A stretch of DNA of 46,442 nucleotides, from assembly GCA_023667245.1 (NCBI GenBank), contig JAMPAL010000010.1:1-46442 (forward strand), read 5' to 3'. This document shows positions 29,652 to 46,442 of the stretch, in pieces; position 1 is the stretch's first letter, and every line of letters begins with the position of its first letter. The position numbers and the translations under genes were made by a program. The notes below the pieces were generated by a model. The model was not told the origin of the DNA, searched no databases, and worked only from the letters and a program-made list of their open reading frames with translations. The DNA is from Anaeroplasma bactoclasticum (GTDB lineage: Bacteria > Bacillota_I > Bacilli_A > ML615J-28 > CAG-313).

Positions 29652-29738
29652 GCAATCGTGGCGGAATAGGTAGACGCGCTACTTTGAGGGGGTAGTGACC
29701 GAATGGTCGTGTGAGTTCGAGTCTCATCGATTGCACCA
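29652..29738 (+). tRNA. tRNA-Leu (anticodon GAG)
   Basis: The acceptor stem GCAATCG/CGATTGC, a long variable arm typical of Leu, the anticodon loop TTGAGGG (anticodon GAG), the T-loop GTTCGAGTC and an encoded CCA are all present. The accessory island starts immediately downstream, which fits tRNA genes being common integration sites. Confidence 0.96.
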
Positions 29739-29792: not shown

Positions 29793-30065
29793 TTTGCGAA
29801 ACAGGGCTGAAATGCTTAAATTTGGCTTAATTAAAGATAAATTTGGGCTGTGTCGTCTCATTTTCGCTATTTTGAGTACATCTTTAAGTGAAAATTTAAG
29901 AGCAAATGTAGGCAAAGCACGACCACGATTTAACGATTACTAGCACAATTTAACGATTACCCCCACAATTTAACGATTACTATTTTAGAAGATATTAATT
30001 TGAACATCATAAAGCATCTTTTTATAAAAATCTCAAATTTGTTTCGACATAATATGGCAAACATC
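29793..30065. other. Gene-free leader of the island
   Basis: About 270 bases lie between the tRNA terminator and the operon promoter. The stretch contains the three-copy 20-bp repeat array and, at 29812-29914, A/T-rich partial inverted repeats around AAATTT. A frame of 62 codons (29755-29943) crosses the terminator and the first repeat, has no ribosome site and is not accepted as a gene. No integrase is present. Confidence 0.5.
29923..29980. repeat. Three direct repeats with an exact 20-bp period
   Basis: CCACGATTTAACGATTAC (29923-29940), GCACAATTTAACGATTAC (29943-29960) and CCACAATTTAACGATTAC (29963-29980) share ATTTAACGATTAC exactly and are separated by two bases each. The repeat ends 85 bases upstream of the -35 of the BREX-like operon. 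A period of two helical turns suggests a protein-binding array. Confidence 0.85.
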
Positions 30066-30132: not shown

Positions 30133-30336
30133 ATGAAGATTGATTATCCAGCCACTATAATTCGTATACGAGCTGAACTTGGATTATCGCAAACAGAATT
30201 GGCAGAAATCCTTGGTGTCTCCTTTACGTCTGTTAATAGATGGGAAAACGGAAAATATGAACCTACTAAAGCTGTAAAAAAGAGAATTGAAGTTTTATGT
30301 GAAAAACACGAGATAAAACTTGAGATAAAAAAATAA
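30133..30336 (+). CDS. XRE-family helix-turn-helix regulator
   Basis: The 67-residue protein is a single helix-turn-helix domain: LGLSQTELAEILGVSFTSVNRWENGKYEPT covers the recognition helix (residues 15-45, both halves visible). It has no effector domain, so it probably binds DNA as a dimer and controls its own operon. ATGGAGAG lies upstream of the ATG. It is the first gene of the island operon, with 19 bases to the probable start of the next gene. Small regulators of this kind often lead restriction and BREX loci, where they delay or limit expression. Confidence 0.85.
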   Translation: MKIDYPATIIRIRAELGLSQTELAEILGVSFTSVNRWENGKYEPTKAVKKRIEVLCEKHEIKLEIKK

Positions 30337-30355: not shown

Positions 30356-33300
30356 ATGGATTTTAAGCAAGCGTTTATAAATTGGATATCTACTAATAAG
30401 TTAAAGAACACTACCCCTATTGATTTAGCTAATAATATAGAGGTAGCTTTTAACGTTTGCTTTAATTTAGATGTTTGGCAAATTAGTGACCCAAAGCTTT
30501 ATAGTGATTTAAGGAATAAAATCATATTAGATAAGAATTTTAAAAGAAAAAACAAAAAAATATATAAAAAATTTGTGACTTTAGGTAGGTGCTATCAGGT
30601 TTTTTTGAAAAATGAATTTATTACAAATTCTGTTAAATCGATGAATTTTAATAATGTAGACGAACTACCTACGCATGATTCATCTGAAGGAAAAACATTA
30701 ATTCAATCCGAAGATGAAAATAGAATATATGAATTTTTTAATGATAATAAGGCGGCACAGAAATTTTGCAAAGTTTTTGAATATGCATTAAAAGAAGTCA
30801 AGGATTTAGTCTTGGATATCAGAGTTTCAATAATAGGAGTAAAAATTGTAGGTGAAAGGCTTAGATTTTATTCCGATAAAACTAATTTGAAATTTAGTAA
30901 AACAAATAGAACTTTTTTACTCGCAAACAACGATGATGATTTAGATGATATATTTGCTGCTGTTGATGAGGTAAACAAGTATTTTTGTGATTTTTGTGAT
31001 GAGGTTGTCATTTTCAAAGAGAGGGAACTGTCTCTAGGATATGTATATCATTTAAAGTTTGGATTTGGTTATATAATGAGTCAAGAAGATAATATTGTTA
31101 AGATTAAGTTTGACGATGATTCAATAGGTATCAAAATAATTCAACTTAATCACCCCACTTATGAAAAAATTAGTAGACAAGATTATGAAAGAAAGCTGGT
31201 GCCAAATGGAATAAAAGAAAAATCTTCAACTGGACGTGTAGGATGGGATAAGTTTGAAAGTGCTTTATTGATTGAGGCCTTTTGGAAAATAGAAAATAAA
31301 AAAGGAAATCGAAATGAGATTTTAACAAAGCTCTCAAATGATTTAAGAACACGTGCTATACATTTAGGTCAAAAAATAGATGATAAATTTAGAAATTTAA
31401 ATGGTGTGAATATCCAGTTATCTAATATAGCCTTGTCGTTTTATCCAGAACGTTCTGCAATGCATAGGACAGCTATTTTTGATACTATTGCAAAAATATA
31501 TTTAAATGATCGCAATGAATTTGATCGTATTTTATCGGAAGCACATGAACAAGTGAATGGAACACAACATAATACATACGTTGATAGCAAAAGTAAAAAG
31601 TATGTTATTTCTATGGCAGAAGTTGATTTTTATTCTTATATAAAAGATAGTTATATTCAAAATCATAAAGCAGATGGTAAAGCACATAGAGCTAATAATC
31701 ACGCCCAGAAATGTATTGATATAGTAAGAGATATAAATGAAATGTTGCTTCTATCCAAATTGAAAATTAATAATATTTATTCTATATCTAATGTTAACGA
31801 ACTTAATCAGATAATAGCATTTGTTAAGGAAAATCTCAAAGATAAATCTGAAGATAAAGTAAAATGGGTATGGTATGTCCTAAATAGATATAAGATTTTT
31901 TTGAAGGAAGAAAAGAAAAAACTAAATTCTATTGAAAATATGAGCAATCCTAATAATGAAGATGTAATAACTCAAGGATTTATTTCTGCAGAGGAGAGAA
32001 TGAGGATGTATCCTGATTATGTTAAGGTTTTGCAAGAATGTTTCCCAGAAGGGTTTGCTTATAAAAATCAATTGAGAAAAAGAAAGTTTATTAAATGTTA
32101 TTCAGAATTAAATGGCAAAGTTCTTGAGGATAGCAATGAAGTATATGAAAAAAAATTATTGATGATTGGATTTATTAGTGAAGAAAAAGTATATTTACCA
32201 TCAATTGTAGATGCTACAACATATAAAGCGTTGAAAAAATACATTGATAAAAAACTGGATGCAACAGGTTCAATCATTTACTATTCTGTTATTTATGATA
32301 GTTTTACAGATAGATTGAATGCAGGCTTCAGTGAGGGTATGTTAAAGGAATATCTAATATATATTTTTGCCGGTGTATATAAGTTTGATAGGGAATATTT
32401 GTCAAAGGTTGGCACTACTGGAGATTCTAAGAAGGATTTGATTAATTTATTCATAAACACAGGTCATCCAATGGAAATAGAAGAGATTTACTCTAAATTA
32501 CCCAATATTGCACAAAATGCAATCGATGGATTACTGCGAGATAGGGATTTTATAGTTAACTTTAGAGGGAAATCGTATTTCTACAAAGGTATTTTCGAGA
32601 TAGAAGATCAACAATTGAGTAAAATTAGGGATTTTATTAGAGAGACTATCCAAGAAAAATATCATGTGAGTAGTGCTGAACTATGTTCCTTCATACGTGA
32701 GGAAATGCCAGAATTGATAGAATCGAATCCATATGTTACGGATCTAGGTTTTAAGAATTCAATAAAATTACTTTTAAATGATGAGTTCAGTTTCAAAGGT
32801 GATGTAATTAGTGAGTCAAGTAAGCAAATTGATGTAAAGGAATTGTATCGAGAATTCTGTAGAAGAAGAGAAAAATTTACTTTGGAAGAACTCGAAGAAT
32901 TTAAAGCTTCAATTCATAAAAGTTATATTGATTACAATGCTGTTTTTGAAATTTCAATTAGAGTAGATGCAGATACATATGTAAGACGAGATATTATTAA
33001 TTTTGATGTTGAGAAGATTGATAACGCAATTTTGAATTATTGTAACGATAAATACGTTTCTTACCTGGATATAATCAATTTTATAGAATTTCCCACTTTA
33101 CAATATCCGTGGAATTATTATGTTTTGGAGGGGTATCTGTTTTCTGAAAGCAAAATATTTTCCATACTAAATGCTACATTTAATAAAGAAAAGCCAGTAG
33201 GTGCAATAATAAAAAAACATGCTTTTGATAATTTTGATGATTTAATAGTTGACGTTATCAAAGAAAATAGATTATTTAATAGAGAGAAAGCCTTTGAGTA

Positions 33301-33376
33301 TCTTCAAGAAAATTGCTTTATCTTGACAAGAAAATTTAAGAATATTGATTTACTCATTAATAAGGCAAAAATGTAA
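30356..33376 (+). CDS. Large multidomain DNA-sensor-like protein of unknown function
   Basis: This 1006-residue protein is not an assigned BREX component. Residues 1-87 form a helical domain (FINWISTNK to CYQVFLKNE) that recurs in a second copy at about 423-518 (VDFYSYIKDSYIQ to RYKIFLKEE). Residues 226-266 look like a Tudor/SH3-like barrel (LGYVYHLKFGFGYI then VKIKFDD), as at the C terminus of UvrD-type helicases. Residues 294-365 match a domain found in defence nucleases and helicases (W297, then LIEAFWKIENKKGNRNE and IDDKFRNLNGVNIQLSN). From about 545 to the end there are winged-helix-like segments, such as FINTGHPMEIEEIYSKLPNI. No nuclease, ATPase or methylase motif was found. ATG 30356 is preferred over an in-frame TTG at 30338, though the ribosome site is weak. 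Translation probably follows on from the XRE gene. Confidence 0.7.
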   Translation: MDFKQAFINWISTNKLKNTTPIDLANNIEVAFNVCFNLDVWQISDPKLYSDLRNKIILDKNFKRKNKKIYKKFVTLGRCYQVFLKNEFITNSVKSMNFNNVDELPTHDSSEGKTLIQSEDENRIYEFFNDNKAAQKFCKVFEYALKEVKDLVLDIRVSIIGVKIVGERLRFYSDKTNLKFSKTNRTFLLANNDDDLDDIFAAVDEVNKYFCDFCDEVVIFKERELSLGYVYHLKFGFGYIMSQEDNIVKIKFDDDSIGIKIIQLNHPTYEKISRQDYERKLVPNGIKEKSSTGRVGWDKFESALLIEAFWKIENKKGNRNEILTKLSNDLRTRAIHLGQKIDDKFRNLNGVNIQLSNIALSFYPERSAMHRTAIFDTIAKIYLNDRNEFDRILSEAHEQVNGTQHNTYVDSKSKKYVISMAEVDFYSYIKDSYIQNHKADGKAHRANNHAQKCIDIVRDINEMLLLSKLKINNIYSISNVNELNQIIAFVKENLKDKSEDKVKWVWYVLNRYKIFLKEEKKKLNSIENMSNPNNEDVITQGFISAEERMRMYPDYVKVLQECFPEGFAYKNQLRKRKFIKCYSELNGKVLEDSNEVYEKKLLMIGFISEEKVYLPSIVDATTYKALKKYIDKKLDATGSIIYYSVIYDSFTDRLNAGFSEGMLKEYLIYIFAGVYKFDREYLSKVGTTGDSKKDLINLFINTGHPMEIEEIYSKLPNIAQNAIDGLLRDRDFIVNFRGKSYFYKGIFEIEDQQLSKIRDFIRETIQEKYHVSSAELCSFIREEMPELIESNPYVTDLGFKNSIKLLLNDEFSFKGDVISESSKQIDVKELYREFCRRREKFTLEELEEFKASIHKSYIDYNAVFEISIRVDADTYVRRDIINFDVEKIDNAILNYCNDKYVSYLDIINFIEFPTLQYPWNYYVLEGYLFSESKIFSILNATFNKEKPVGAIIKKHAFDNFDDLIVDVIKENRLFNREKAFEYLQENCFILTRKFKNIDLLINKAKM

Positions 33377-33397: not shown

Positions 33398-35755
33398 ATG
33401 TATTCATATGAGTGGGATGAAGAAACAGGTGGTATATTGTTAAATAGCACTCCATTGCAAATGAGCAAGGAACCAAGACCCGTTTATTATAAAGAATTGG
33501 ACATATTAGGTTTTGATAAATATTGGAAATACGATAAGGATGATTCTTATCCGTATATGTGGGCAGAGGCGAACAACTATTTCTATAGAGGAAGACTTGT
33601 TGGAAAAACAAGAGGTGGTACAATGTGTACCGCTCCAGAAATAATAATTGTTGAAGATCCTGAGCCAAACGGTGCAAAATTACAATTCGTTGATGTTAAT
33701 AAAATGGTTGAAAAAAATAGAACTATTATTGATCAACTAGCACAACACACAATTAAGAAGACATATTCATATTATTTAAATTATCAAAATAAAGTTGACG
33801 TATTCTATGTTGCTTTTAGTGGTGGAAAAGATAGTGTTGTAGCGTTGGATATTGTTCAAAGGACTTTGCCACACAACGAATTCCTTGTTTTGTTTGGCGA
33901 TACAGGTATGGAATTTTCAGATACCTATGATACGGCAAAAATAATTGAAAAACAATGTGAGCAAAATGGAATTAAGTTTCTAACCGCAAAATCAAATTTA
34001 GATCCAACTGATACATGGAGGATGTTCGGTCCGCCAGCTCAAAGGATGCGTTGGTGTTGTAGTGTTCATAAATCTACTCCTCAAATATTGGAACTCCGCA
34101 GATATTTACATAATGATAAATTTAAGGGAATGGCATTCACTGGTGTAAGAGCCGATGAAAGCGAAGCCAGAAGTGAGTATGAAGAAGTAAATAACGGAGA
34201 AAAGGTTAAAGGACAATATAGTTGTCATCCAATATTGGAATGGAACTCCGCTGAATTATTCTTGTATATATATCAAAATAATCTTTATTTGAATAAGGCG
34301 TATAAAAAAGGAAATAGCAGAGCGGGATGCCTAATATGTCCTCTTGCTGGACAAAAGAATTCATATATTAAGAGTGTTTGTTATAATAAATCGATTTGTG
34401 GTGAAAATACAACAAAAACATTTAATGATATTATATTAGAAACAACATCAAAAACATTATCGTCGCAAAATTCGATTGAAGAATTTATGAACATAGGTGG
34501 CTGGAAAGCAAGAAGGAGTGGACGTGAATTAAATATTGCAAAAGATATTTATTCTGACGAGATAAAAAATGGTGTATTGACAATTACAATTAAAAAAAAT
34601 GATAAGAGTTGGAAGGAATGGATAAAGACCATTGGTAAAATCATTTCAATTTCTGATACAGATGTGAAGATAGAATTCCAAGATAAAATATACATTGTTG
34701 ATGTTAAGTATGATTTTGATAAAACTAGTTTCGTTGTTGATTTAGCATCTAACACAAGAAATGATATCTACTTTTGTTCATACCTTAAAATTGTTGCGAG
34801 AAAATCATGCTATTGTATAGGATGTCGAGTTTGCGAAGCAAATTGTCCCAATGGATTTATTTCGTTTAAGAATGGACAAGTGTTTGTTGATGATAAATGC
34901 GTGAAATGTAAAAAATGTTATGAGGTTGATTATGGTTGCCTAGTTGCTAATTCATTAAAATTACCAAAAGGAGAAAAGAAAATGGGGAGCATTGATAGAT
35001 ATACAAATTTAGGAGTTGAATATGATTGGATTAAAGAGTATTTTGAAAAAAAAGATTCCTTTTGGGAAAATCATAATTTAGGAAGCAAAAAAATTGATGT
35101 ATTTAAGAACTTTTTAAAGGATTCTGGTGTAAGTGAAAAAAACGTAATGACAAAGTTTGGTTACCTTGTTGCCAATTTGGGGGCAGAGAGTGCTACATCA
35201 TGGGGATTAATGTTATCAAATTTGGCATACACTCCTGAGTTTAATTGGTGGATTAAAAATATAGAATTAAATTCGTATGTAGATTCAACGCTTATTATCA
35301 ATATGCTTGATTCGAATTTGACTGGAAATACCAAAGACCATGTAGCGAGTGCGTTTAAAAACATATTTATTTCCAACAAACCCTTATCAGAAGAAATTGG
35401 GTTGGGAGTTTGTGATTATGAGATAAAAAACGGAAAGAGAAAATTAAATAGTATTATGAGAAGAAGTTGGATTGATCCCGATCCCAAAGTAATATTGTAT
35501 TCCCTTTATAAATTTGCGGAAAACTGTGGAAATTACTATCAATTTTCATTGACCAGATTATTAAATCACTCTATTGAAAGTGATGGAATAAGTCCGACAG
35601 AGATTTTTGGTTTAAACAGAGAAACAATGGAGAAAGTATTACAAGGATTGGCCATTAACTATCCCGAATACATTTCGGTTTCTTTTACATTGGATTTAGA
35701 TAATATTAATCTAAGGAACGACAAAACATCTGATGATGTTCTTGAAATATTCTAA
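33398..35755 (+). CDS. brxP: BrxP: PAPS reductase/DndC-like enzyme fused to ferredoxin and C-terminal domain
   Basis: The 785-residue protein defines type 4 BREX. Residues 135-320 are an adenine-nucleotide alpha-hydrolase domain of the PAPS-reductase/DndC type. The PP-loop is SGGKDS (141-146), followed by DTGMEFSDTY and cysteines C220, C221, C311 and C314 (RMRWCCSVHK, GCLICPL) that could hold an iron-sulfur cluster. Residues 471-514 are a two-cluster ferredoxin domain (C473, C476, C479, C483 and C501, C504, C507, C514). Residues 530-785 resemble the DUF4007 domain known from phosphorothioation loci (ending region DPDPKVILYSLYKFAENCG), an assignment from pattern only. A DndC-like role, activating or transferring sulfur to DNA, is inferred. 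AAGGAGGTG precedes the start. Confidence 0.85.
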   Translation: MYSYEWDEETGGILLNSTPLQMSKEPRPVYYKELDILGFDKYWKYDKDDSYPYMWAEANNYFYRGRLVGKTRGGTMCTAPEIIIVEDPEPNGAKLQFVDVNKMVEKNRTIIDQLAQHTIKKTYSYYLNYQNKVDVFYVAFSGGKDSVVALDIVQRTLPHNEFLVLFGDTGMEFSDTYDTAKIIEKQCEQNGIKFLTAKSNLDPTDTWRMFGPPAQRMRWCCSVHKSTPQILELRRYLHNDKFKGMAFTGVRADESEARSEYEEVNNGEKVKGQYSCHPILEWNSAELFLYIYQNNLYLNKAYKKGNSRAGCLICPLAGQKNSYIKSVCYNKSICGENTTKTFNDIILETTSKTLSSQNSIEEFMNIGGWKARRSGRELNIAKDIYSDEIKNGVLTITIKKNDKSWKEWIKTIGKIISISDTDVKIEFQDKIYIVDVKYDFDKTSFVVDLASNTRNDIYFCSYLKIVARKSCYCIGCRVCEANCPNGFISFKNGQVFVDDKCVKCKKCYEVDYGCLVANSLKLPKGEKKMGSIDRYTNLGVEYDWIKEYFEKKDSFWENHNLGSKKIDVFKNFLKDSGVSEKNVMTKFGYLVANLGAESATSWGLMLSNLAYTPEFNWWIKNIELNSYVDSTLIINMLDSNLTGNTKDHVASAFKNIFISNKPLSEEIGLGVCDYEIKNGKRKLNSIMRRSWIDPDPKVILYSLYKFAENCGNYYQFSLTRLLNHSIESDGISPTEIFGLNRETMEKVLQGLAINYPEYISVSFTLDLDNINLRNDKTSDDVLEIF

Positions 35756-35772: not shown

Positions 35773-38700
35773 ATGAATTCTAAAAAATATAGAAACTATT
35801 TTCAAATTAATGAAAGTTATTTCCCTGCAGTTAATGAAGATGTCATTAAAACACAACCTAATCATTGGAAGACATACTACCCACATGAAACTTTCATGAA
35901 ACTTTTAGAAAATACTATTAGTGTTTTAACTAGAAGACAAAAGTTATCCATATGGGTTGAAGGTGCGTATGGTACTGGTAAATCCCACGCTGTTTTGACA
36001 TTGAAGAAACTCTTGGATTGTTCTAATGAAGAATTGAAAGAGTATTTTGATAATTATAAATCTGTTTTCAAAAATAATGATTTGTATAATGAATTTTATA
36101 ATATTAAGAACCAATCAAAAAAAGTATTAACAGTACATAGATATGGCTCATCAAACGTTAGAAATGATAATATTATGGTTAACATTGTACAAGAAAGTAT
36201 TATCAAAGGATTGGAAAGCAATGGCTATGAATATAAAGGACAAGTAGGTATTAGGCAAGCAATGATAAATTGGCTTATCAATAAGTCTAATCGTCAATAC
36301 TTTAACAATATAGTGCAAGAAGAGTATAGAATCTTGTTTAGTGGAGCAAGTGCAGACACTATTCTTGAGCAATTAAAATCTTTAACAGATGAAGATGCAA
36401 TTCAAACACTTACAGAAAAAATTTCTCTTGTTGGTGAAGAAAAAGGAATTAAGCCATTTGTTCTTCAAAAAGAAGATTTGAGAAGCTGGATTATTGATGT
36501 TATTGATAAAAATAATCTTAAAGCAATTTTCTTTATTTGGGATGAATTTTCTGATTACTTCAGTCTAAATAAAGGTGATTTGTCTGGCTTCCAATATTTA
36601 GCTGAGTTGAGCGAAACATACCCTTTCTATCTTACAATAGTTACCCATAAGTCAGACATTTTCTTTGAAAATTCGAAAAATGATTTGAGAACAAAAATAA
36701 ATGGTCGTTTTATTGCCCCGCATTGTTCAATCGAATTGCCAGACAATATGGCATTTATTTTAACTGGGCACGCTATGCAAAAAAAGACCGACCTACAAAT
36801 TAGAAAAGAGTGGGATGAAATAGTAGATGCTCTTTATGATGTAACACATGACTCTAGAAAAGAGGTAATGACAACCGCTAAAATTGGTGAAAAAGAATTA
36901 AAGGGTGTATTGCCAATTCATCCATATGCTGCATTGGTTTTGAAACATATTGCAGTAGCCTTTGACTCTAACCAAAGAAGTATGTTTGACTTTATCAAAA
37001 ACGATAGAGGAGAAGAAATAAAAGGTTTCCAATGGTTTATTGATAATTATGGACCAGACGATGATGATGAAGCATTGCTTACAGTTGATTTGTTATGGGA
37101 TTTCTTCTATGAAAAGGGTAGAGATCAACTAGCTCCTCAAACAAGAATGGTGCTTGATGTTTATGGTAGAGTGGAATCACATAATTTAAATAACAAACAA
37201 AAGCGAGTATTAAAGACTATTCTTTTGCTTCAAGCAATTAATGAAAAAGTTGGTGATACTGTTTCTTTGTTTGTACCTAATAAGAAGAATTTAGCACTTG
37301 CTTTTGAAGGTACCGACATTTCACCAAGCAATGCAAGTTCTTTCGCAGATAGTCTTATCAAAGAACAAATTATATTTGAAAGACCTATGGGCGGTGGAGC
37401 ATTTAAGTATTCTGCCTTAGTTTCTAATGGAAATCTTGAGGAAATTAGTAAAGAAAAAGAAAGACTAACAAGAGAAAGTAGAACAGATAAGTTAATTGAA
37501 GAAGGCGAATTTGTAAACGATTTTAAATTGCCACGTAATTTAGAAATTAGATTTATACTAAGACATCTCACATACGAAAACATAAAGATGGAATTATCAA
37601 AAATAATTGCCGACTCTTCAAACCATCCTTCTAGATTATATGCTATCTACACATTTGCAAGAAATGAAGAAGAGTGTATACGTATAAGACAAGAAATTAG
37701 AAGAACCTTAGATTCTGGTTTCGAGAAAGCTATATTTATTGATTATTCTAGCAACTATTTAAGTTCTGATTTGTTCAATCAATATATTGAAAATATGGCA
37801 AACTGTAATTATCAAAAAGGCAAGGATCAAGGACAAGCAAGAACATACGATAAGAATGCAAAGGAAGCCATTAGAAGATGGAAACTTTCAATTAGAAATA
37901 ATTCTTGCAGAGTGTATACTTCTTTCGATTTGGATGGTACTATTTGTAATTCCGAATCCGAAATTCACTATGCAGTAAAATCTTTTGACAAAGAACATTT
38001 TCCTAATGCATTAGAAACACATGTAAATGTTATTGATAACATGTATGCTTCAAATGCATTGAAACAAGGTGCGGAATGTGGTTTGACAGGTGAAATCAAA
38101 GGAACATATAAATCTGCCAACGAAAATACTAAACTAGAAAAACAATTTTCCGGTGTTTGGAATGTCGAAAATTATTGGACTGTTAGGCCAAATGAATTGG
38201 TTTCTAAAGTTAAAAACAAGGTAGAAGAGATAATAAAAAGCAATTTTGATAAGAAGACAAGAGTTTCTATTGGAGATGTCTATGATGCTCTTATTGATTC
38301 TCCGTTTGGATTTTTACCTTGTAATTTAACTGCATTTATAATGGGCTATGTTCTGAGAGATTATGCGAATGACGCATACAATTGGACAGATGATTTAACA
38401 ACTGTTCCTATGTCTATAGAAAAAATGAAGGAGATGATTGAGGAAATAATCAAGCAACAGCAAACTCCTTCAAATAAGTATAGAACAAAATACATAGTTG
38501 AAATGTCGCCAGACCAAAGAGAATTTAATAAATCAACGGCTTTTGCTTTTGAAATAGATGAAGCATTATGTACATCAGTTGAAAATACAAGAACAAGAGT
38601 TCGTTCAAAAATGAATTCGTTTAAATTTCCTATATGGACATTAAAATATTGTGAATTTTCTTCAATTAGTCTAAGAGAAAAAGTTGAACAGCTTATTGAT

Positions 38701-39972
38701 CTATATGTTGAACTTGCAAACAACTCTACTTCTGTCAGAACAGAAACGGACATTGCTCTTGACATAGGTAGATTGTATCGTGAAAACAATAAACTAAATG
38801 TTGACATTAAGGGTTTACTGACAAAAGATAAGTGTGTTGAAGGAATGCATAATTATCTTAAATCATATGAAGGTGGTAAATTAATTAGATTAGCAAGTCA
38901 ATTAAATGATTCAGGTTCTTATATCAATGAGATTAATAAGAAGTTTAGTGAAGCATCAAATTGGGTATGGAATAAGAAAACTGTTGATGAGAAAATCGAT
39001 GAAACCATTGTTGAATATGAAATTGTTTGCGAGAGTAATAGTTTTATTACAAAAACGGTAACATATCTTGATTGTATTTCTGAATGGAAAAAGAAATGTG
39101 AAATGTTTAAGGTTGCTTTCCAAGCCGTAAAAAATGATGTTAAAGATTTGCGTGACTTTTTGGAAATTTTATATCAACTTAAGAAAAATGGTTACATTTA
39201 TGACAATTCAAAGAAAGATTTTTTAGAATGCTTGAAATCAAAGAAAGAACAATTTAAAAATTTCTGCGAAAATCAAATCACGATTTTATTTCAAACAGAA
39301 AGATTTTATTTAGATGGTTTATCTGATGAAGATGTTAACTCAATTTCCACAAAATTATATGATGTATTTGCAATGGAAAATAGTGAATATCAAAGACGCC
39401 TAGAAGCTGAAGTAAGTGATTACAAAGCTAATATGTCTAAATATCAACTTATTGAATTATGGAAAAAAAGAACATTTACAGAATCCCCAATGGAATGGTC
39501 CGAGAAGTATTCCATGCCAATATTATGTATAATACCTGCTTTAGAGCAAGATGAGGCTCGAAGTGTATTTGACACAATTAATAGTCAAGCTAATGACAAG
39601 AACAGAATAGATTATGCAATTGATTATCTTGAAAAATTCCCTTATTTCGATGACTTGAATTCTGAATTAGCAAGAAATAATGCATTTAAGAAATTCATCC
39701 TAAAATCATACTCAACGATGTTAGATGATATTTTAGAAGTTAAAAAAACTATTAGAGGTAAAGTGTCCATTCATCCATATCATTGGCTAGAAAATTCAGC
39801 TATTAATGATTTAATAAAGAATCTTGCATTCCAAAAATATAATAATGGAGGCAATTCTAAGGTGTACATGGTTATAGATTCAATGTCGCCTGATGAATTA
39901 AAGAAATACTTGAAGAACCTTGTAAGAGAAAATATGATTGTTGGTATTGAAATAATTAACAATCAAAAGTAA
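35773..39972 (+). CDS. brxC: BrxC-like large P-loop ATPase
   Basis: The 1399-residue protein has Walker A GAYGTGKSH at residues 64-72 and Walker B AIFFIWDEFSDYF at 251-263, the arrangement of BrxC/PglY ATPases. The remainder is long, helical and charged with no second enzymatic motif. BrxC is an essential core component of all BREX types and is thought to act with PglZ on DNA. Length is a little above the usual 1200. The ribosome site is a run of G. pglZ follows after 11 bases. Confidence 0.88.
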   Translation: MNSKKYRNYFQINESYFPAVNEDVIKTQPNHWKTYYPHETFMKLLENTISVLTRRQKLSIWVEGAYGTGKSHAVLTLKKLLDCSNEELKEYFDNYKSVFKNNDLYNEFYNIKNQSKKVLTVHRYGSSNVRNDNIMVNIVQESIIKGLESNGYEYKGQVGIRQAMINWLINKSNRQYFNNIVQEEYRILFSGASADTILEQLKSLTDEDAIQTLTEKISLVGEEKGIKPFVLQKEDLRSWIIDVIDKNNLKAIFFIWDEFSDYFSLNKGDLSGFQYLAELSETYPFYLTIVTHKSDIFFENSKNDLRTKINGRFIAPHCSIELPDNMAFILTGHAMQKKTDLQIRKEWDEIVDALYDVTHDSRKEVMTTAKIGEKELKGVLPIHPYAALVLKHIAVAFDSNQRSMFDFIKNDRGEEIKGFQWFIDNYGPDDDDEALLTVDLLWDFFYEKGRDQLAPQTRMVLDVYGRVESHNLNNKQKRVLKTILLLQAINEKVGDTVSLFVPNKKNLALAFEGTDISPSNASSFADSLIKEQIIFERPMGGGAFKYSALVSNGNLEEISKEKERLTRESRTDKLIEEGEFVNDFKLPRNLEIRFILRHLTYENIKMELSKIIADSSNHPSRLYAIYTFARNEEECIRIRQEIRRTLDSGFEKAIFIDYSSNYLSSDLFNQYIENMANCNYQKGKDQGQARTYDKNAKEAIRRWKLSIRNNSCRVYTSFDLDGTICNSESEIHYAVKSFDKEHFPNALETHVNVIDNMYASNALKQGAECGLTGEIKGTYKSANENTKLEKQFSGVWNVENYWTVRPNELVSKVKNKVEEIIKSNFDKKTRVSIGDVYDALIDSPFGFLPCNLTAFIMGYVLRDYANDAYNWTDDLTTVPMSIEKMKEMIEEIIKQQQTPSNKYRTKYIVEMSPDQREFNKSTAFAFEIDEALCTSVENTRTRVRSKMNSFKFPIWTLKYCEFSSISLREKVEQLIDLYVELANNSTSVRTETDIALDIGRLYRENNKLNVDIKGLLTKDKCVEGMHNYLKSYEGGKLIRLASQLNDSGSYINEINKKFSEASNWVWNKKTVDEKIDETIVEYEIVCESNSFITKTVTYLDCISEWKKKCEMFKVAFQAVKNDVKDLRDFLEILYQLKKNGYIYDNSKKDFLECLKSKKEQFKNFCENQITILFQTERFYLDGLSDEDVNSISTKLYDVFAMENSEYQRRLEAEVSDYKANMSKYQLIELWKKRTFTESPMEWSEKYSMPILCIIPALEQDEARSVFDTINSQANDKNRIDYAIDYLEKFPYFDDLNSELARNNAFKKFILKSYSTMLDDILEVKKTIRGKVSIHPYHWLENSAINDLIKNLAFQKYNNGGNSKVYMVIDSMSPDELKKYLKNLVRENMIVGIEIINNQK

Positions 39973-39983
39973 GGAGTTACAGC

Positions 39984-42245
39984 ATGCATGAACGTTTGAA
40001 AAACAAAATTAATTCATTCATAGATAGTAATGATAATAGACCACTTATTATTGATGTTTCCAATGTTGAAGAGCGGGATAATTTGCTTCAAGATTTTTTT
40101 GCTACCCCCAGAAAGAGCATTTTTGAACTTGTAAAGAGTGAATGTGAGTTGCCTGAAATTTCAAGTTTGTATGAGTATATGTCTAATTGTAAAGAAAAAA
40201 CTGTTATTCTTACTGATTTGGGAACTTATTTTAAATTATTGGGACAGGATTCATTACAACAAAACATCCATGCCTTATTGGAAAAATCTTTTGCGACAAA
40301 GTTTATTATTCTTACTTTACAATGTGGACAATACCTTAATGAGAAAAATCCTAAAAACGCATCAAAAATAGTTGTGAGTGAGAATCAAAATTATTCAAGT
40401 ACACCCGCGATTGTATTTGTTAATAATGAATATAAGCAATATGTTCGTGCAGAAAATGGTTTAAATGTTGCTTTGCGAAATGTTGAAAGAAATACTGGAG
40501 TCAAAATCTATGTGCTGACAAGTTATAAGAAAAAGGATTTTAAATCACCATTGTTTAACATAGAAGAATGCAAAGATGCATTTGAATTATTATGCTTAAG
40601 AGATTTAAAGGTTAAGAAGTTAAAATCTCAATATGGGACAAAAGCTGAGTGGTCAACATTATTAAATAAACTTCAAAACGATTCAGTTGAGGAAACAATT
40701 AAGGAGTTTATTATTACAAAAAATTTCATCAAAAATATTGAAGAATGGAACAATAAAACACCATTTGAAAAGTGGCTTTTATTTATTTATTCCAAACTAA
40801 ATAATATTAAAACCGAAAATTGGGCAGTGAATTATGCTATTGCTAAGGCAAACAAATATAATGAATTTTTAAGATTAATTTATGACTCACTTCTTGAAAT
40901 CAACTATAAGGAAGAAGACTTTTGGAGCAAATATGAACAAAGAAAGCAAATCCTAAAGAAAATAGGTGATGATTCAATTATTTATGACTATTGTAATTTT
41001 ATTGGCTATAAAAAGGAAGATGCAATATATTATTTAACTGACAATACCGATCGAGAAAAAAATTTAATTATTAAGATAATCGATTCCTATTATCAATCAT
41101 TTAGTAAGAATAAATTATTGAGTGTCCTTAAGTGTGTTTACCCGGACTTGTATGCATATCTTTGTAATTATAACATGGGAGATGAATTACTTAATAGTTA
41201 TTTTAATGAATACAAGTATTTGAAAATAATCAATCATCTTACTCCAGAATTCAAAGCTATTGTTGACAAAGAAGCGTGTGAAAGAAATTACAAAAGAATT
41301 TTAATGTATAGATCTGAAAAATTAGATGAAATATCGTTTGATGATGCTATTGTTTATTTTATAGATGCTTTAGGCGTTGAATTTTTGAGTTATATTGAAC
41401 GAAAATGTGTAGAAAAGGGGTTGGCAGTAAATGTTCATGTCGCTAAAGCAAACCTTCCAACTCTTACCTATAAAAACACTGAATTTAGAGAGTTCTTCAG
41501 TAAGAAAAAAGTTGAAGTTAAAGATGAAAAAGAGCTTGATAGTTTAATTCATGACGGAAAGAATGATTTTGATTTCGATAAGAATAAATTGCCGATACAC
41601 ATAATTGAAGAATTTAAAATAATTGACAACTGTATTTCAAGCATAAATGCCAAATTAAAATCATATTCATATGAGAAGGCTGTAATCGTTTCTGATCACG
41701 GAGCAACTCGTCTTGCTATTTTGAATACAGAAATGATTAAAATTGATGTAGAATCACCAGGCGAGCATGGTGGTAGAGTATGTAAGGTTATCCCAAATAT
41801 GGAAATTATTCCAAATGCAATTTATGAAAATGACGTGTGTATTTTAGGCGATTATAATGCATTTAAAGGAGGCAGAGTTGGTAAGGTAGAAATGCATGGT
41901 GGGGCTACACTTGAAGAGGTAGTTGTTCCAATTATCGAGATATCTCGTAAAGAGGCTAACGTTGAGATAAGAGTTATTACCGAAGTAATTAAGGTAAGTT
42001 ATAAGACAATAGCGGTACTTAAATTCTACTCTAGTAGTAAACTAAGCAATGTAACTGTTCATGTTAATGGTGCATCATATTCTGCAGAGTCAACTGATGG
42101 ATTTAATTTTCTTTCAGAACTCATAGATTTAAAAAGAAGTGGTAACTATAGTTTTGAGGTGTGGGCGAACAATAAACTTGTCTCAACTAATAACAACTTC
42201 AAAATTGAAAAAGAGTCTGCAAAGACTAATAACTTGTGGGAGTGA
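39984..42245 (+). CDS. pglZ: PglZ-domain protein (BrxZ)
   Basis: The 753-residue protein carries a PglZ domain of the alkaline phosphatase superfamily in its C-terminal half. D461 lies in FIDALGVEF, threonines at 493-495 in LPTLTY occupy the nucleophile region, D571-H572 in IVSDHGATRL, and HGG lies at about 595 (GEHGGRV) and about 638 (MHGGATLEEVVVP). These are the predicted metal ligands. The N-terminal half is helical and unassigned. PglZ is the hallmark gene of BREX. AAGGAG precedes the ATG. The end region (GTGGGAGTGA) also provides the ribosome site for brxL. Confidence 0.9.
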   Translation: MHERLKNKINSFIDSNDNRPLIIDVSNVEERDNLLQDFFATPRKSIFELVKSECELPEISSLYEYMSNCKEKTVILTDLGTYFKLLGQDSLQQNIHALLEKSFATKFIILTLQCGQYLNEKNPKNASKIVVSENQNYSSTPAIVFVNNEYKQYVRAENGLNVALRNVERNTGVKIYVLTSYKKKDFKSPLFNIEECKDAFELLCLRDLKVKKLKSQYGTKAEWSTLLNKLQNDSVEETIKEFIITKNFIKNIEEWNNKTPFEKWLLFIYSKLNNIKTENWAVNYAIAKANKYNEFLRLIYDSLLEINYKEEDFWSKYEQRKQILKKIGDDSIIYDYCNFIGYKKEDAIYYLTDNTDREKNLIIKIIDSYYQSFSKNKLLSVLKCVYPDLYAYLCNYNMGDELLNSYFNEYKYLKIINHLTPEFKAIVDKEACERNYKRILMYRSEKLDEISFDDAIVYFIDALGVEFLSYIERKCVEKGLAVNVHVAKANLPTLTYKNTEFREFFSKKKVEVKDEKELDSLIHDGKNDFDFDKNKLPIHIIEEFKIIDNCISSINAKLKSYSYEKAVIVSDHGATRLAILNTEMIKIDVESPGEHGGRVCKVIPNMEIIPNAIYENDVCILGDYNAFKGGRVGKVEMHGGATLEEVVVPIIEISRKEANVEIRVITEVIKVSYKTIAVLKFYSSSKLSNVTVHVNGASYSAESTDGFNFLSELIDLKRSGNYSFEVWANNKLVSTNNNFKIEKESAKTNNLWE

Positions 42246-42250
42246 TAAAT

Positions 42251-43729
42251 ATGATAGATAAATTAAAAGAATATTTTGATGAGATGGTTGTTTATAAAGA
42301 CATCAAAAATACAAGTTTTTTTACCAATTTGAATTTGCCATCTTTCTTAAGAGATTATTTACTTAAAATTTTTCAAGATGATAATGGAGAAATTGATTAT
42401 GAGGGAATGGATAAATTTATAAAAGAAAGAATACCCAGAAAAGAAGAATGGATTGGCATTAAAGAAAGAATTGTAATTGGTGGAGAAAGAGTCAAATTTT
42501 TGACTAGAATATCTGTTGATATTGATGTTGCTACACAAGCCATATCTTTTTCGCTTCCAGATTTTGGTTTAACAAACAAGGAAACAATTATAGAACCTCA
42601 TATTTGGCAAGATTTAAAGAATGAGCTTATTAGTGCAAGAGATGTTTGGGGTATTGTCGAATTAGGATACAAATATCCAGATAATTATGACATTGAGTTT
42701 ACTGGCAAAAACTTTAACAAAGCGAAATATAAAGAAAAAGGGAAAATCAAGCTTTGCTCATTTAAGAATTTCTGTCCATATTCAATTGATATTGATTATT
42801 ACAAAGATATAAGAAATGAATTTGATGTACATGAATGGATTGATTTGATTTTGGGTGCGGTTGATTATAATGCTCATGGATATGAAAGCGAGCATCAAAA
42901 GTTAGCTGTTTTAACAAGATTGCTTCCTTTTATAGAAAAAAGGCTTAATATCATTGAATTAGCACCTAAAGGTACAGGTAAATCTTATTTGTTTGGACAT
43001 GTTAGTAAGTATGGTACATTAGTTGATGGCGGAAAAGTATCACGTTCAAAAATGTTTTATGATGCTGCTTCTCGTAAGTATGGATTTATTCAAGGGAATG
43101 ATTTTGTAGCTATTGATGAAATAAAACTTGTAAAGTTTAATGATGATAACGAGATGCGTTCAATTCTTCAAGGGTACATGGAATATGGTTCTTTTAACTG
43201 TAATGGCTTTGAAGGTGAAGCTGATGCTGGTATTGTTTTTTTAGGTAATATATCGCAGGAGTATATGGATGAATATCAATATATGCTTAATGAATTGCCA
43301 AATTTATTTCAAGAAACAGCATTGTTAGATCGTATTCATGGTTTCATAAAAGGATGGGATATTCCAAGAATGAATGACGACTTGAAATTAACAGGTTGGG
43401 CGTTGAATTCCGAATATTTTTGTTCAATAATGCATTTGTTAAGGGATGATACTTCATATAGAACAATTGTTGATAGGCTAATTGAGGTTCCAGAAAAAGC
43501 TGATACTAGAGATACTGAGGCCGTAAAAAGAATCGCAACAGCATATTTAAAATTGTTATTTCCGAATGTCAGAAAAACGACAGATATTAATATAAAAGAT
43601 TTTAAGAACTATTGTCTTAAGCCTGCAATGAAGATGAGAGAAATAGTTAGAATGCAACAAATTTATCTTGATAAAGAGTATAAAGGAAAAGACATACCTG
43701 ACTTTAAAATTGTTGCAAACGAGGAGTGA
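42251..43729 (+). CDS. brxL: BrxL-like AAA+ protein, short form without protease domain
   Basis: The 492-residue protein has Walker A APKGTGKSY (238-246), Walker B FVAIDE (285-290), sensor GNIS (332-335) and an arginine at 361 (LLDRIHGF), matching the AAA+ core of BrxL. BrxL of type 1 BREX is longer and has a Lon-like C-terminal domain; no Ser-Lys protease dyad region is seen here and the protein ends about 130 residues after the AAA+ core. The ATG at 42251 has GGGAGTGA upstream within the end of pglZ. BrxL has been shown in type 1 systems to form DNA-binding ring assemblies; the same is inferred here. Confidence 0.87.
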   Translation: MIDKLKEYFDEMVVYKDIKNTSFFTNLNLPSFLRDYLLKIFQDDNGEIDYEGMDKFIKERIPRKEEWIGIKERIVIGGERVKFLTRISVDIDVATQAISFSLPDFGLTNKETIIEPHIWQDLKNELISARDVWGIVELGYKYPDNYDIEFTGKNFNKAKYKEKGKIKLCSFKNFCPYSIDIDYYKDIRNEFDVHEWIDLILGAVDYNAHGYESEHQKLAVLTRLLPFIEKRLNIIELAPKGTGKSYLFGHVSKYGTLVDGGKVSRSKMFYDAASRKYGFIQGNDFVAIDEIKLVKFNDDNEMRSILQGYMEYGSFNCNGFEGEADAGIVFLGNISQEYMDEYQYMLNELPNLFQETALLDRIHGFIKGWDIPRMNDDLKLTGWALNSEYFCSIMHLLRDDTSYRTIVDRLIEVPEKADTRDTEAVKRIATAYLKLLFPNVRKTTDINIKDFKNYCLKPAMKMREIVRMQQIYLDKEYKGKDIPDFKIVANEE

Positions 43730-43732
43730 ATT

Positions 43733-43930
43733 ATGAAGATTTGTTGTGTTGCGTGTTTTAAAGAAAATTTAAATAAAGATACTATTGCATTAAACAAGAA
43801 GTTATTAGGGAAAAATATTGAAAAGTACTATTGTCTAGATTGTCTTGCAGGTTTTTTAAATGTGACTGTAGACGAAGTATTAGAAAAAATAGAAGAATTT
43901 AAAGAAGAAGGATGCGAATTGTTTAAATGA
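43733..43930 (+). CDS. 65-residue cysteine-rich CxxC protein
   Basis: This tiny protein has two CxxC pairs (C5/C8 in CCVACF and C34/C37 in YYCLDCLAGFL), which could bind zinc or an iron-sulfur centre. Additional cysteines are C4 and C61, and there is a C-terminal helix (VDEVLEKIEEFKEEGC). GAGGAGTGA at the end of brxL is its ribosome site, and its last codons overlap the cysteine desulfurase start by ATGA, so the two are translationally coupled. That coupling suggests it works with the desulfurase, for example as a sulfur acceptor or adaptor, by inference only. I do not recognise a named family. Confidence 0.75.
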   Translation: MKICCVACFKENLNKDTIALNKKLLGKNIEKYYCLDCLAGFLNVTVDEVLEKIEEFKEEGCELFK

Positions 43931-45060
43931 AAAAAACAATCTATGCAGATAATGCTGCCACAACAAAACTATCAGAAAATGTATTTGATAAAATGAAAAA
44001 ATATTTACTAGATGATTTTGGTAACCCATCTCAGTCATATTCTTTTTCTCGTGGCTCAAAAAAAGCATTAAAAGAAGCACGATTAAGAATTGCATCTTGC
44101 ATTGGAGCAAGACAAGAAGAAATTTTCTTTACATCTGGCGGAAGTGAAAGTGATAATTGGGCTATAAAATGTTTTGGTAAAATTTCAGATAAGAAGGTAA
44201 TAATAACTTCGTGTATTGAACATCATGCAATTTTAAATGCGTGTGAAGACGAAAGAAAAAAAGGTGCACAAATACTATTTATTTCCGTTGATGATGATGG
44301 CATAGTGAATTTAGAAGAATTAGAAAAATGTTTAATAAAGCATCAAACAAGTAATGTGCTTGTGTCAATTATGACTGCGAACAATGAAATAGGAACGATT
44401 GAACCGATTTATGAAATATCTAAAATATGTCATAAATATGGGACATTGTTCCATACGGATGCTGTACAAGCTATAGGACATGTGCAAATAGATGTAAGTA
44501 AACTAGGCGTTGATATGTTATCTGCTTCTGCACATAAATTTAATGGTCCTAAAGGAATAGGTTTTTTGTACATAAGAGAAGGAACGCAAATTGCATCATT
44601 TGTAAATGGAGGCTCACAAGAGAATGGTAAAAGAGCAGGAACAGAAAATGTACCTGCAATAGTAGGTATGTCGTATGCACTAGAAGAATCAATTTTAAAA
44701 ATGGAAGAAACAACTCAAATGCTCTCTAAGATGGAAGCAAAGTTTATATCTAATTTGAAAGATAATAATGTCGATTTCCTAAGGAATGGGGACATTAATA
44801 ATCATTTGCCTGGTCTAATTAACGTTTCTATAAAAAATACGAGCGGGGAATTAGTTCTACATAGACTTGATTTAATGGGGTATTATATATCTACAGGATC
44901 AGCATGTGATGGCAAAAAAAATCAAGTATCGCATGTTATAAAATCAATTAAAGTTGATAATGATTACGCAGAAGGAACTATACGAATAAGCTTTGGACGA
45001 ATGAATCAAGTTTCCGATGCAGAAGAAATTGCAATGGCGTTGGTACATGTGTTGAAATGA
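43927..45060 (+). CDS. Cysteine desulfurase (DndA/IscS/NifS type)
   Basis: The 377-residue PLP enzyme removes sulfur from L-cysteine as a persulfide. Key residues are present: H100 in EHHAIL, D178 in HTDAVQ, PLP lysine K204 in SASAHKFNGPKG, the RAGTENVPAIVG motif and catalytic C327 in STGSACDGKKNQ. Length is normal for the family. In phosphorothioation systems the homologous DndA or IscS supplies sulfur to DndC; here the DndC-like partner is BrxP, five genes upstream in the same operon. The start overlaps the CxxC gene by 4 bases. A housekeeping iron-sulfur role is possible, but no IscU-like scaffold is adjacent. Confidence 0.9.
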   Translation: MKKTIYADNAATTKLSENVFDKMKKYLLDDFGNPSQSYSFSRGSKKALKEARLRIASCIGARQEEIFFTSGGSESDNWAIKCFGKISDKKVIITSCIEHHAILNACEDERKKGAQILFISVDDDGIVNLEELEKCLIKHQTSNVLVSIMTANNEIGTIEPIYEISKICHKYGTLFHTDAVQAIGHVQIDVSKLGVDMLSASAHKFNGPKGIGFLYIREGTQIASFVNGGSQENGKRAGTENVPAIVGMSYALEESILKMEETTQMLSKMEAKFISNLKDNNVDFLRNGDINNHLPGLINVSIKNTSGELVLHRLDLMGYYISTGSACDGKKNQVSHVIKSIKVDNDYAEGTIRISFGRMNQVSDAEEIAMALVHVLK

Positions 45061-45397: not shown

Positions 45398-45413
45398 AAG
45401 GAGGTGGTGCTTA

Positions 45414-45446
45414 ATGAAAGTATTTATTTGCATCATTAGTTATTAG
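45414..45446 (+). CDS. Possible 10-residue leader peptide of the IS21 transposase
   Basis: A very strong ribosome site, AAGGAGGTGG, lies directly before ATG 45414, which opens MKVFICIISY and stops at 45446. The stop falls inside a hairpin (45430-45452) that precedes the transposase gene. Expression is unproven. Confidence 0.35.
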   Translation: MKVFICIISY

Positions 45447-45452
45447 TGATGC
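45430..45452 (+). promoter_or_regulatory. Hairpin between the leader frame and the transposase gene
   Basis: GCATCATTA (45430-45438) pairs with TAGTGATGC (45444-45452) with one G-T pair around a 5-base loop. It ends 23 bases before the AAGGAGGT ribosome site of the transposase and has no T-run. Confidence 0.5.
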
Positions 45453-45490
45453 ATTTGTAAGATTTCAAAATAAAGAAGGAGGTAAAAAGA

Positions 45491-46442
45491 GTGCTTGGAA
45501 TCGAACAATTTAAAAAATTACAAGAGTATAAGAAGCTAGGGGTATCAAAACTTAAGGTATCTGAAAAACTTAATTTATCGTATAAAACCGTATGGAACTG
45601 GTGGGATAGAGACGAAGATTTCTTTTACAAGTTTCAAAAAGAACATGAGTTTATCTTGGATAATTATAGGCAGTATATTATTGAAATATTAAAGATATGT
45701 CCCCAAATAAATAATACTGTGCTTCTAAGAAGAATCAAGGATGATTTTAGTGACTTTGATATTCCTTCTACTACATTTTATAGGTATGTTAAAAAGGTTA
45801 GAGAACAAACTGGATTATTAAAACCTGCTAGAAAGTATTCTATAAGAGAAGAAACAGAACCAGGTTATGAAGGGCAAGTTGATTTCGGTCAGTATGTGAT
45901 GAAAACAATGTATGGAAGAAATATTAGAATTTATTTCTTTTCGATGATTTTATCGTATAGCAGAATGAAGTTTGCTTATTTTTCAGTAGAGCCATTTGAT
46001 GCAAGCAAGACTATTGAAAGTCATATTTATGCATTTAGATATTTTGGTGGAAGACCTCAAATGATTGTTTATGACCAGGATAAAACAATGGTGGTATCTG
46101 AAAATTTAGGTGAAGTTATTTTTGTTAAGGAATTTGAAGAATTTATCAAAGAGACAGGGTTTTCAATATATTTATGCAAAGGATATGATCCATCAACTAA
46201 AGGTAAAGTTGAAAAGACAGTTGATTTTGTTAAACATCAATTTTTAGATGGAAGAATCTATTATGGCATTGATAGATTAAATGCAGAATTTATGGATTGG
46301 TTAGACAGAGTTGGTAATGGTCTAATTAATGAAACAACCAAAAAAGTCCCTAGACAATTATTTAAAAAAGAATATCCTAAACTCATCAAGTATTATGAAA
46401 AGAAAAATGATGAAATGGTAGTTCATACTGTTTATCATGATA
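45491..46442 (+). CDS. istA: IS21-family transposase IstA, truncated by the window end
   Basis: 317 codons are visible and the frame is open at the window edge. The N terminus holds a helix-turn-helix (YKKLGVSKLKVSEKLNLSYK). The DDE catalytic core follows: D131 in GQVDFGQY, D195 in VYDQDKTMV and E241 in KGKVEKTVDFVK, with the family's PRQLFKKEYP-like region after it. The GTG start at 45491 has a perfect AAGGAGGT 7 bases upstream. The helper ATPase IstB should lie beyond the window. Terminal inverted repeats could not be defined. Confidence 0.88.
   Translation, partial: MLGIEQFKKLQEYKKLGVSKLKVSEKLNLSYKTVWNWWDRDEDFFYKFQKEHEFILDNYRQYIIEILKICPQINNTVLLRRIKDDFSDFDIPSTTFYRYVKKVREQTGLLKPARKYSIREETEPGYEGQVDFGQYVMKTMYGRNIRIYFFSMILSYSRMKFAYFSVEPFDASKTIESHIYAFRYFGGRPQMIVYDQDKTMVVSENLGEVIFVKEFEEFIKETGFSIYLCKGYDPSTKGKVEKTVDFVKHQFLDGRIYYGIDRLNAEFMDWLDRVGNGLINETTKKVPRQLFKKEYPKLIKYYEKKNDEMVVHTVYHD

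What the first reader, a model, noticed from the sequence alone, without database searches (positions are those of the whole stretch)
30356..33376. Unassigned 1006-residue multidomain protein leads the operon
It combines a duplicated helical domain seen in defence proteins (1-87 and 423-518), a Tudor/SH3-like barrel (226-266), the W..LLIEAFW..IDDKFRN domain (294-365) and a tail of winged-helix-like units, but no visible catalytic site. That composition suggests a reader of DNA state, perhaps of the sulfur mark, or a restriction adaptor.
Basis: partly seen in the sequence, partly recalled or inferred. Interest (0 to 1): 0.75.

Follow-up and report, generated by a model that had tools for sequence, protein, structure and literature searches.

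The report
Modular winged-helix subunit of BREX-4
The unassigned 1006-residue protein is a fast-evolving, probably DNA-recognising subunit that leads one of the two branches found here of the type 4 BREX anti-phage system (the kind that marks its own DNA with sulfur); this matters because no library or paper I could read describes it and it is a good candidate for how these systems choose their DNA target.

Summary
The ORF is real and its described domains hold up: two copies of a recombinase-type SAM-like helical domain (1-94, 419-526), a UvrD-class Tudor barrel (226-276), the W..LLIEAFW domain (293-403) and a tail of six winged helices (543-1006; AlphaFold pLDDT 95.8). No Pfam, NCBIfam or PADLOC model matches it. 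The operon is BREX type 4: brxP, brxC, pglZ, brxL and a DndA-like cysteine desulfurase follow directly. Among 80 related BREX-4 loci, every one that could be judged (79, one frameshifted) has a gene just upstream of brxP with the same winged-helix tail; what precedes the tail varies from nothing to about 1190 residues and is reshuffled almost independently of the BrxP tree. The tail is the fastest-evolving of the five components compared. The gene is not universal: BREX-4 splits into a clade with it and a clade without it, and the clade with it has an extra ~400-residue BrxC C-terminal domain that the other lacks. Best reading: a constant adaptor subunit that gives the complex its DNA target choice (modification, restriction or both), with optional swappable N-terminal readers. 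A sulfur-mark reader is not supported specifically. Subunit status is well supported; the recognition role is inferred.

The parts
30356..33376 (+). BREX-4 leader protein, 1006 aa (P0001)
   Evidence: ORF; same-position relatives
30356..30637 (+). SAM-like (recombinase core-binding type) helical domain, copy 1, residues 1-94
30686..31021 (+). helical segment, residues 111-222, shared only with L023; low model confidence
31031..31183 (+). UvrD-class Tudor barrel, residues 226-276; only in P0001, L022 and L023
31232..31564 (+). W..LLIEAFW / RNxNGI domain, residues 293-403
   Evidence: 40 leaders
31610..31933 (+). SAM-like helical domain, copy 2, residues 419-526
31982..33373 (+). Conserved C-module, residues 543-1006: six winged helices and a helical tail
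   Evidence: AlphaFold pLDDT 95.8; conserved in 78 loci
33398..35755 (+). BrxP (PAPS-reductase domain, Cys-rich ferredoxin-like region, C-terminal region in the DUF4007 position)
   Evidence: PADLOC BrxP 1.8e-239, Pfam PAPS_reduct 2.7e-27
35773..39972 (+). BrxC, long form (1399 aa)
   Evidence: PADLOC BrxC 3.2e-231
38725..39969 (+). BrxC C-terminal domain (residues 985-1399), found only in BREX-4 loci of the leader clade
   Evidence: 71 of 71 leader-clade loci with data, none in leaderless loci
39984..42245 (+). PglZ, BREX-4 type
   Evidence: NCBIfam NF033445 1.2e-109
42236..43729 (+). BrxL
   Evidence: PADLOC 1.3e-200, Pfam BrxL_ATPase
43927..45060 (+). DndA/SspA-like cysteine desulfurase
   Evidence: PADLOC DndA 3e-124
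30133..30336 (+). 67-aa XRE-like HTH protein, likely operon regulator
   Evidence: translation; XRE assignment by reading the sequence

Best explanation
The protein is a constant subunit of one clade of BREX type 4. Its winged-helix C-module is the shared core and plausibly docks on the BREX complex, with the extra C-terminal domain of BrxC as the best candidate partner. It works as an adaptor that gives the complex its DNA target choice, for sulfur marking, restriction or both. The optional, swappable N-terminal domains (SAM-like, W, Tudor, HARE-HTH, Sigma r4) add DNA or partner contacts. Shown: operon linkage, conservation, modularity, fast evolution, predicted fold, and co-occurrence with the BrxC domain. 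Inferred: docking on BrxC, DNA recognition, and any role in modification versus restriction.
For: 78 of 80 related BREX-4 loci carry the C-module gene by profile search. The other two are L066, with only 79 nt upstream, and L098, whose leader is broken by a frame change but still matches (E 3e-8). Distance to brxP is -50 to +20 nt in 71 of 79, median 3 nt. In 395 Bacilli genomes the only matches at E below 1e-100 are the three genomes with full-length BrxP. On the BrxP tree leader and leaderless loci are separated by a 100% branch. BrxC has an extra ~400-aa domain in 71/71 leader-clade loci with data and none in leaderless ones. The C-module has the lowest identity of five components in 96% of 98 pairs with BrxP 60-90% identical (means: C-module 36, PglZ 43, BrxC 52, BrxP 65, BrxL 70%). 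N-terminal architecture needs 43 changes on the tree against 51.8 for shuffled labels. Pfam/PADLOC domains in leaders include HARE-HTH, Sigma70_r4 and DUF3780 and no firm nuclease or ATPase.
Against: About 8 leaders are C-module alone, so the N-terminal domains cannot be the essential specificity element. The C-module is net acidic in all 75 measured (-3.2 per 100 aa), which fits protein docking better than broad DNA binding. Leaderless BREX-4 loci exist, so the gene is not needed for BREX-4 as such. BrxP already carries a region in the DUF4007/SspB position that could choose the target. No binding or genetics was tested.
Confidence: 0.5

Rival explanations
1. Invader sensor or restriction licensing factor: it detects phage DNA, DNA structure or a phage protein and switches on PglZ/BrxL, but plays no part in placing the sulfur mark.
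For: Fastest-evolving component and swappable front modules, as expected of a phage-facing sensor; BREX-4 without it exists; UvrD-type Tudor suggests protein contacts.
Against: A site-specificity factor would also evolve fast; position next to brxP in nearly all loci points to the modification enzyme at least as much as to PglZ.
Confidence: 0.3
2. Operon regulator: a large DNA-binding repressor or activator of the BREX operon.
For: First large gene; winged helices; distant relatives with Sigma70_r4 also lead defence operons.
Against: Up to 1659 aa with near-overlap with brxP; a small dedicated HTH gene already sits upstream in the window; strict co-occurrence with a BrxC domain suggests a complex partner.
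Confidence: 0.1
3. Reader of the phosphorothioate mark itself.
For: Operon is of the kind that makes the mark; HARE-HTH, proposed to read modified DNA, occurs in a few relatives.
Against: No sulfur-binding-domain match in PDB sequence searches; Tudor is UvrD type and rare in the family.
Confidence: 0.08

Closest known systems
BREX type 4 (brxPCZL plus cysteine desulfurase)
   Same: Downstream genes match all known components
   Different: The leader gene is not among the components listed by Rakesh and Krishnan 2026 (PMC12839542); no PADLOC, Pfam or NCBIfam model
SspB / DndG / DUF4007 / BrxA multi-wHTH recognition modules
   Same: Tandem winged helices in sulfur-marking or BREX systems, proposed to recognise target DNA (PMC10853773, PMC12839542)
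   Different: Six units rather than two to four; no profile similarity to the BrxP C-terminal region in the DUF4007 position (hhalign probability 3%)
Sigma70_r4 + C-module proteins heading other defence operons (L112 with PbeA/PbeC, L114/L115 with PDC-M33A/B)
   Same: Distant but significant C-module similarity (E about 1e-30 to 1e-51 in these three) and a leading position
   Different: Different front domains, different systems, no W or SAM-like domain
UvrD/PcrA C-terminal Tudor domain
   Same: Fold and sequence of residues 226-276
   Different: No helicase; present in only three leaders

Membership tests
BREX type 4 operon | BrxP, BrxC, PglZ-4 and BrxL in order | tested here: met
BREX type 4 operon | DUF4007 fused to the PAPS reductase | tested here: inconclusive
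   BrxP has a conserved ~255-aa C-terminal region but Pfam DUF4007 did not match
BREX type 4 operon | DNA phosphorothioation | not testable with these tools
   needs mass spectrometry
DUF4007/SspB-like multi-wHTH recognition subunit | tandem winged-helix fold | tested here: met
   model of C-module
DUF4007/SspB-like multi-wHTH recognition subunit | detectable profile similarity | tested here: not met
   hhalign probability 3% against the BrxP C-terminal region
Restriction specificity subunit (HsdS-like) | constant part plus exchangeable recognition part | tested here: inconclusive
   Constant tail and exchangeable front are present, but some members lack a front part
Restriction specificity subunit (HsdS-like) | sets the target sequence | not testable with these tools
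   needs motif mapping after swaps
UvrD Tudor domain | fold match | tested here: met
   7egt_B TM 0.79
Sulfur-binding domain (ScoMcrA type) | sequence similarity to solved members | tested here: not met
   no such chain

The most novel reading that the evidence does not exclude
BREX-4 contains a branch with a dedicated exchangeable targeting subunit: one constant winged-helix body bound to a matching BrxC C-terminal domain, onto which evolution plugs different recognition modules, so that the sulfur-marking site or phage range can be changed by swapping modules.
Probability: 0.3. Interest if true: 0.8.

Novelty: new variant of a known kind. Interest (0 to 1): 0.58.

Why it matters
How phosphorothioate-based BREX chooses its DNA target is unresolved in the papers I could read. 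A constant, fast-evolving, module-shuffling subunit that tracks an extra BrxC domain gives a concrete test: swap or delete the gene and see whether marking or restriction moves. It also splits BREX-4 into two recognisable subtypes, which annotation tools could use.

Tried and rejected
Direct search with the whole protein in genomes and plasmids found nothing beyond a UvrD Tudor match; going through BrxP was needed. Universal BREX-4 component: rejected, because five of six Bacteroidales genomes with BrxP (393 searched) and a Methanosphaera plasmid lack it. General leader of Ssp systems: rejected; three Ssp-like loci lack it, and the L119 relative is nearer the Sigma-type group and 325 nt away. 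DUF4007-related C-module: not supported. Specific structural homologue of the C-module: none; PDB and viral fold searches gave only generic winged-helix arrays (UFL1, SelB; TM to query at most 0.24). W domain in Pfam or PDB: only scattered chance-level hits. Duplicated tRNA end marking an insertion: none in the window. Recurrent small HTH partner: found upstream of only 2 of 70 other leaders.

Full report
Observation. The ORF 30356-33376 encodes 1006 residues without interruption. No Pfam, PADLOC or NCBIfam model matches it. The described domains are confirmed. Independent profiles seeded from residues 1-95 and 420-522 converge on the same helical domain, and each finds both copies; relatives of it match Pfam Phage_int_SAM, the core-binding domain of tyrosine recombinases. 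Residues 226-276 form a barrel that superposes on the UvrD Tudor domain (7egt_B, rmsd 1.5 A). Residues 293-403 are the W domain, present in 40 leader proteins. The tail 543-1006 is predicted at pLDDT 95.8 as six winged helices plus a helical end. Residues 93-225 are modelled poorly.

Surroundings. The genes behind it are brxP, brxC, pglZ of the BREX-4 type, brxL and a DndA-like cysteine desulfurase: a BREX type 4 system, the subtype in which a phosphorothioate apparatus replaces the methyltransferase (PMC12839542). Upstream lie a 67-residue HTH gene and a tRNA-Leu gene. G+C drops to 0.28-0.32 over the operon from 0.31-0.35 before it, and full-length BrxP is absent from the four same-genus genomes searched, so the operon is probably acquired.

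Relatives. A BrxP alignment (A1) retrieved 80 BREX-4 loci from Bacillota, Bacteroidota, Synergistota, Planctomycetota, Myxococcota, an archaeon and others. An iterated profile of the tail finds a gene directly upstream of brxP in 78. Of the other two, L066 has only 79 nt upstream and L098 has a frame-broken copy. The gap to brxP is -50 to +20 nt in 71 of 79 cases including the window, median 3 nt. L041 and L053 carry two such genes.

Modularity. The part before the tail ranges from 1 to 1189 residues, median 308. It holds the W domain in about half, one to five SAM-like domains in more than half, and sporadically HARE-HTH, Sigma70_r4, DUF4357, DUF7662 and DUF3780. No nuclease, methyltransferase or ATPase domain was found with confidence; the closest were weak PADLOC SIR2 and HNH hits in single members. 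About eight leaders are the tail alone. In L030 and L050 the W domain is a separate small ORF. On a BrxP tree, presence of W changes at least 17 times and of the SAM-like domain at least 23 times; the combined architecture needs 43 changes, not far below the 51.8 of shuffled labels. In 98 pairs of loci with BrxP 60-90% identical, the tail is the least conserved of five components in 96%. The most conserved stretch is its last ~145 residues.

Not universal. In 393 Bacteroidales genomes, six have BrxP, and only the one chosen as centre has the tail gene. These leaderless loci and a Methanosphaera plasmid form the other side of a 100% supported branch of the BrxP tree. They have shorter BrxC (1133-1189 aa where intact, against 1370-1426) and no desulfurase seen next to them, although the room to see one was short in two of the loci. 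The extra BrxC C-terminal domain (window BrxC 985-1399) is present in 71 of 71 leader-clade loci with data and in no leaderless one, even at E = 1. In Anaeroplasma and in L027 it is encoded by a separate ORF, though frameshifts cannot be excluded. It is the best candidate docking partner; this is inference.

Wider family. Distant C-module relatives with a Sigma70_r4 domain head other defence operons in the same class: PbeA/PbeC in L112 (same genus as the window), PDC-M33A/B in L114 and L115. The winged-helix array thus looks like a shared adaptor of defence operons.

Mechanism. The best reading is a constant adaptor subunit that sets which DNA the complex handles, with optional front modules that widen or tune recognition. 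Against a simple specificity-subunit picture: tail-only members exist, and the tail is net acidic, which fits protein docking. A sensor that licenses restriction fits nearly as well. A specific sulfur-mark reader is not supported. Only genetics can separate these.

Limits. The 80 loci were ranked by similarity to the window's BrxP and 40 weaker ones were not kept, so the near-100% linkage holds for this clade only. The tree used a quick search. The key experimental paper (Yuan et al. 2026) could not be read, so the gene may be mentioned there; the review I could read does not describe it in the passages and sections consulted.

Noticed in passing
29652-29738 and 45410-46442: The BREX operon lies between a tRNA-Leu(GAG) gene and an IS21 IstA-like transposase ORF (identified by reading only), with lower G+C than upstream: probably an acquired island.
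   Followed up: partly
29928-29981: Three direct copies of ATTTAACGATTAC at 20-bp spacing between the tRNA gene and the HTH gene: possible operator.
   Followed up: no
L112:8902-11556, L114:2-3352, L115:9058-11577: Sigma70_r4 plus winged-helix C-module proteins head other defence operons (PbeA/PbeC; PDC-M33A/B).
   Followed up: partly
L041:3472-8083 and L053:4173-9968: Two leader genes in tandem in one BREX-4 operon.
   Followed up: no
L083:12297-16449 and L027:7920-12103: BrxC is split into a ~965-1001-aa core and a separate ~400-aa C-terminal ORF.
   Followed up: partly
L030:4106-4453 and L050:7554-7760: The W domain occurs as a small free-standing ORF upstream of a leader that lacks it.
   Followed up: no
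L021, L132-L135: Leaderless BREX-4 loci also have a shorter BrxC and no adjacent cysteine desulfurase: a second BREX-4 subtype.
   Followed up: partly
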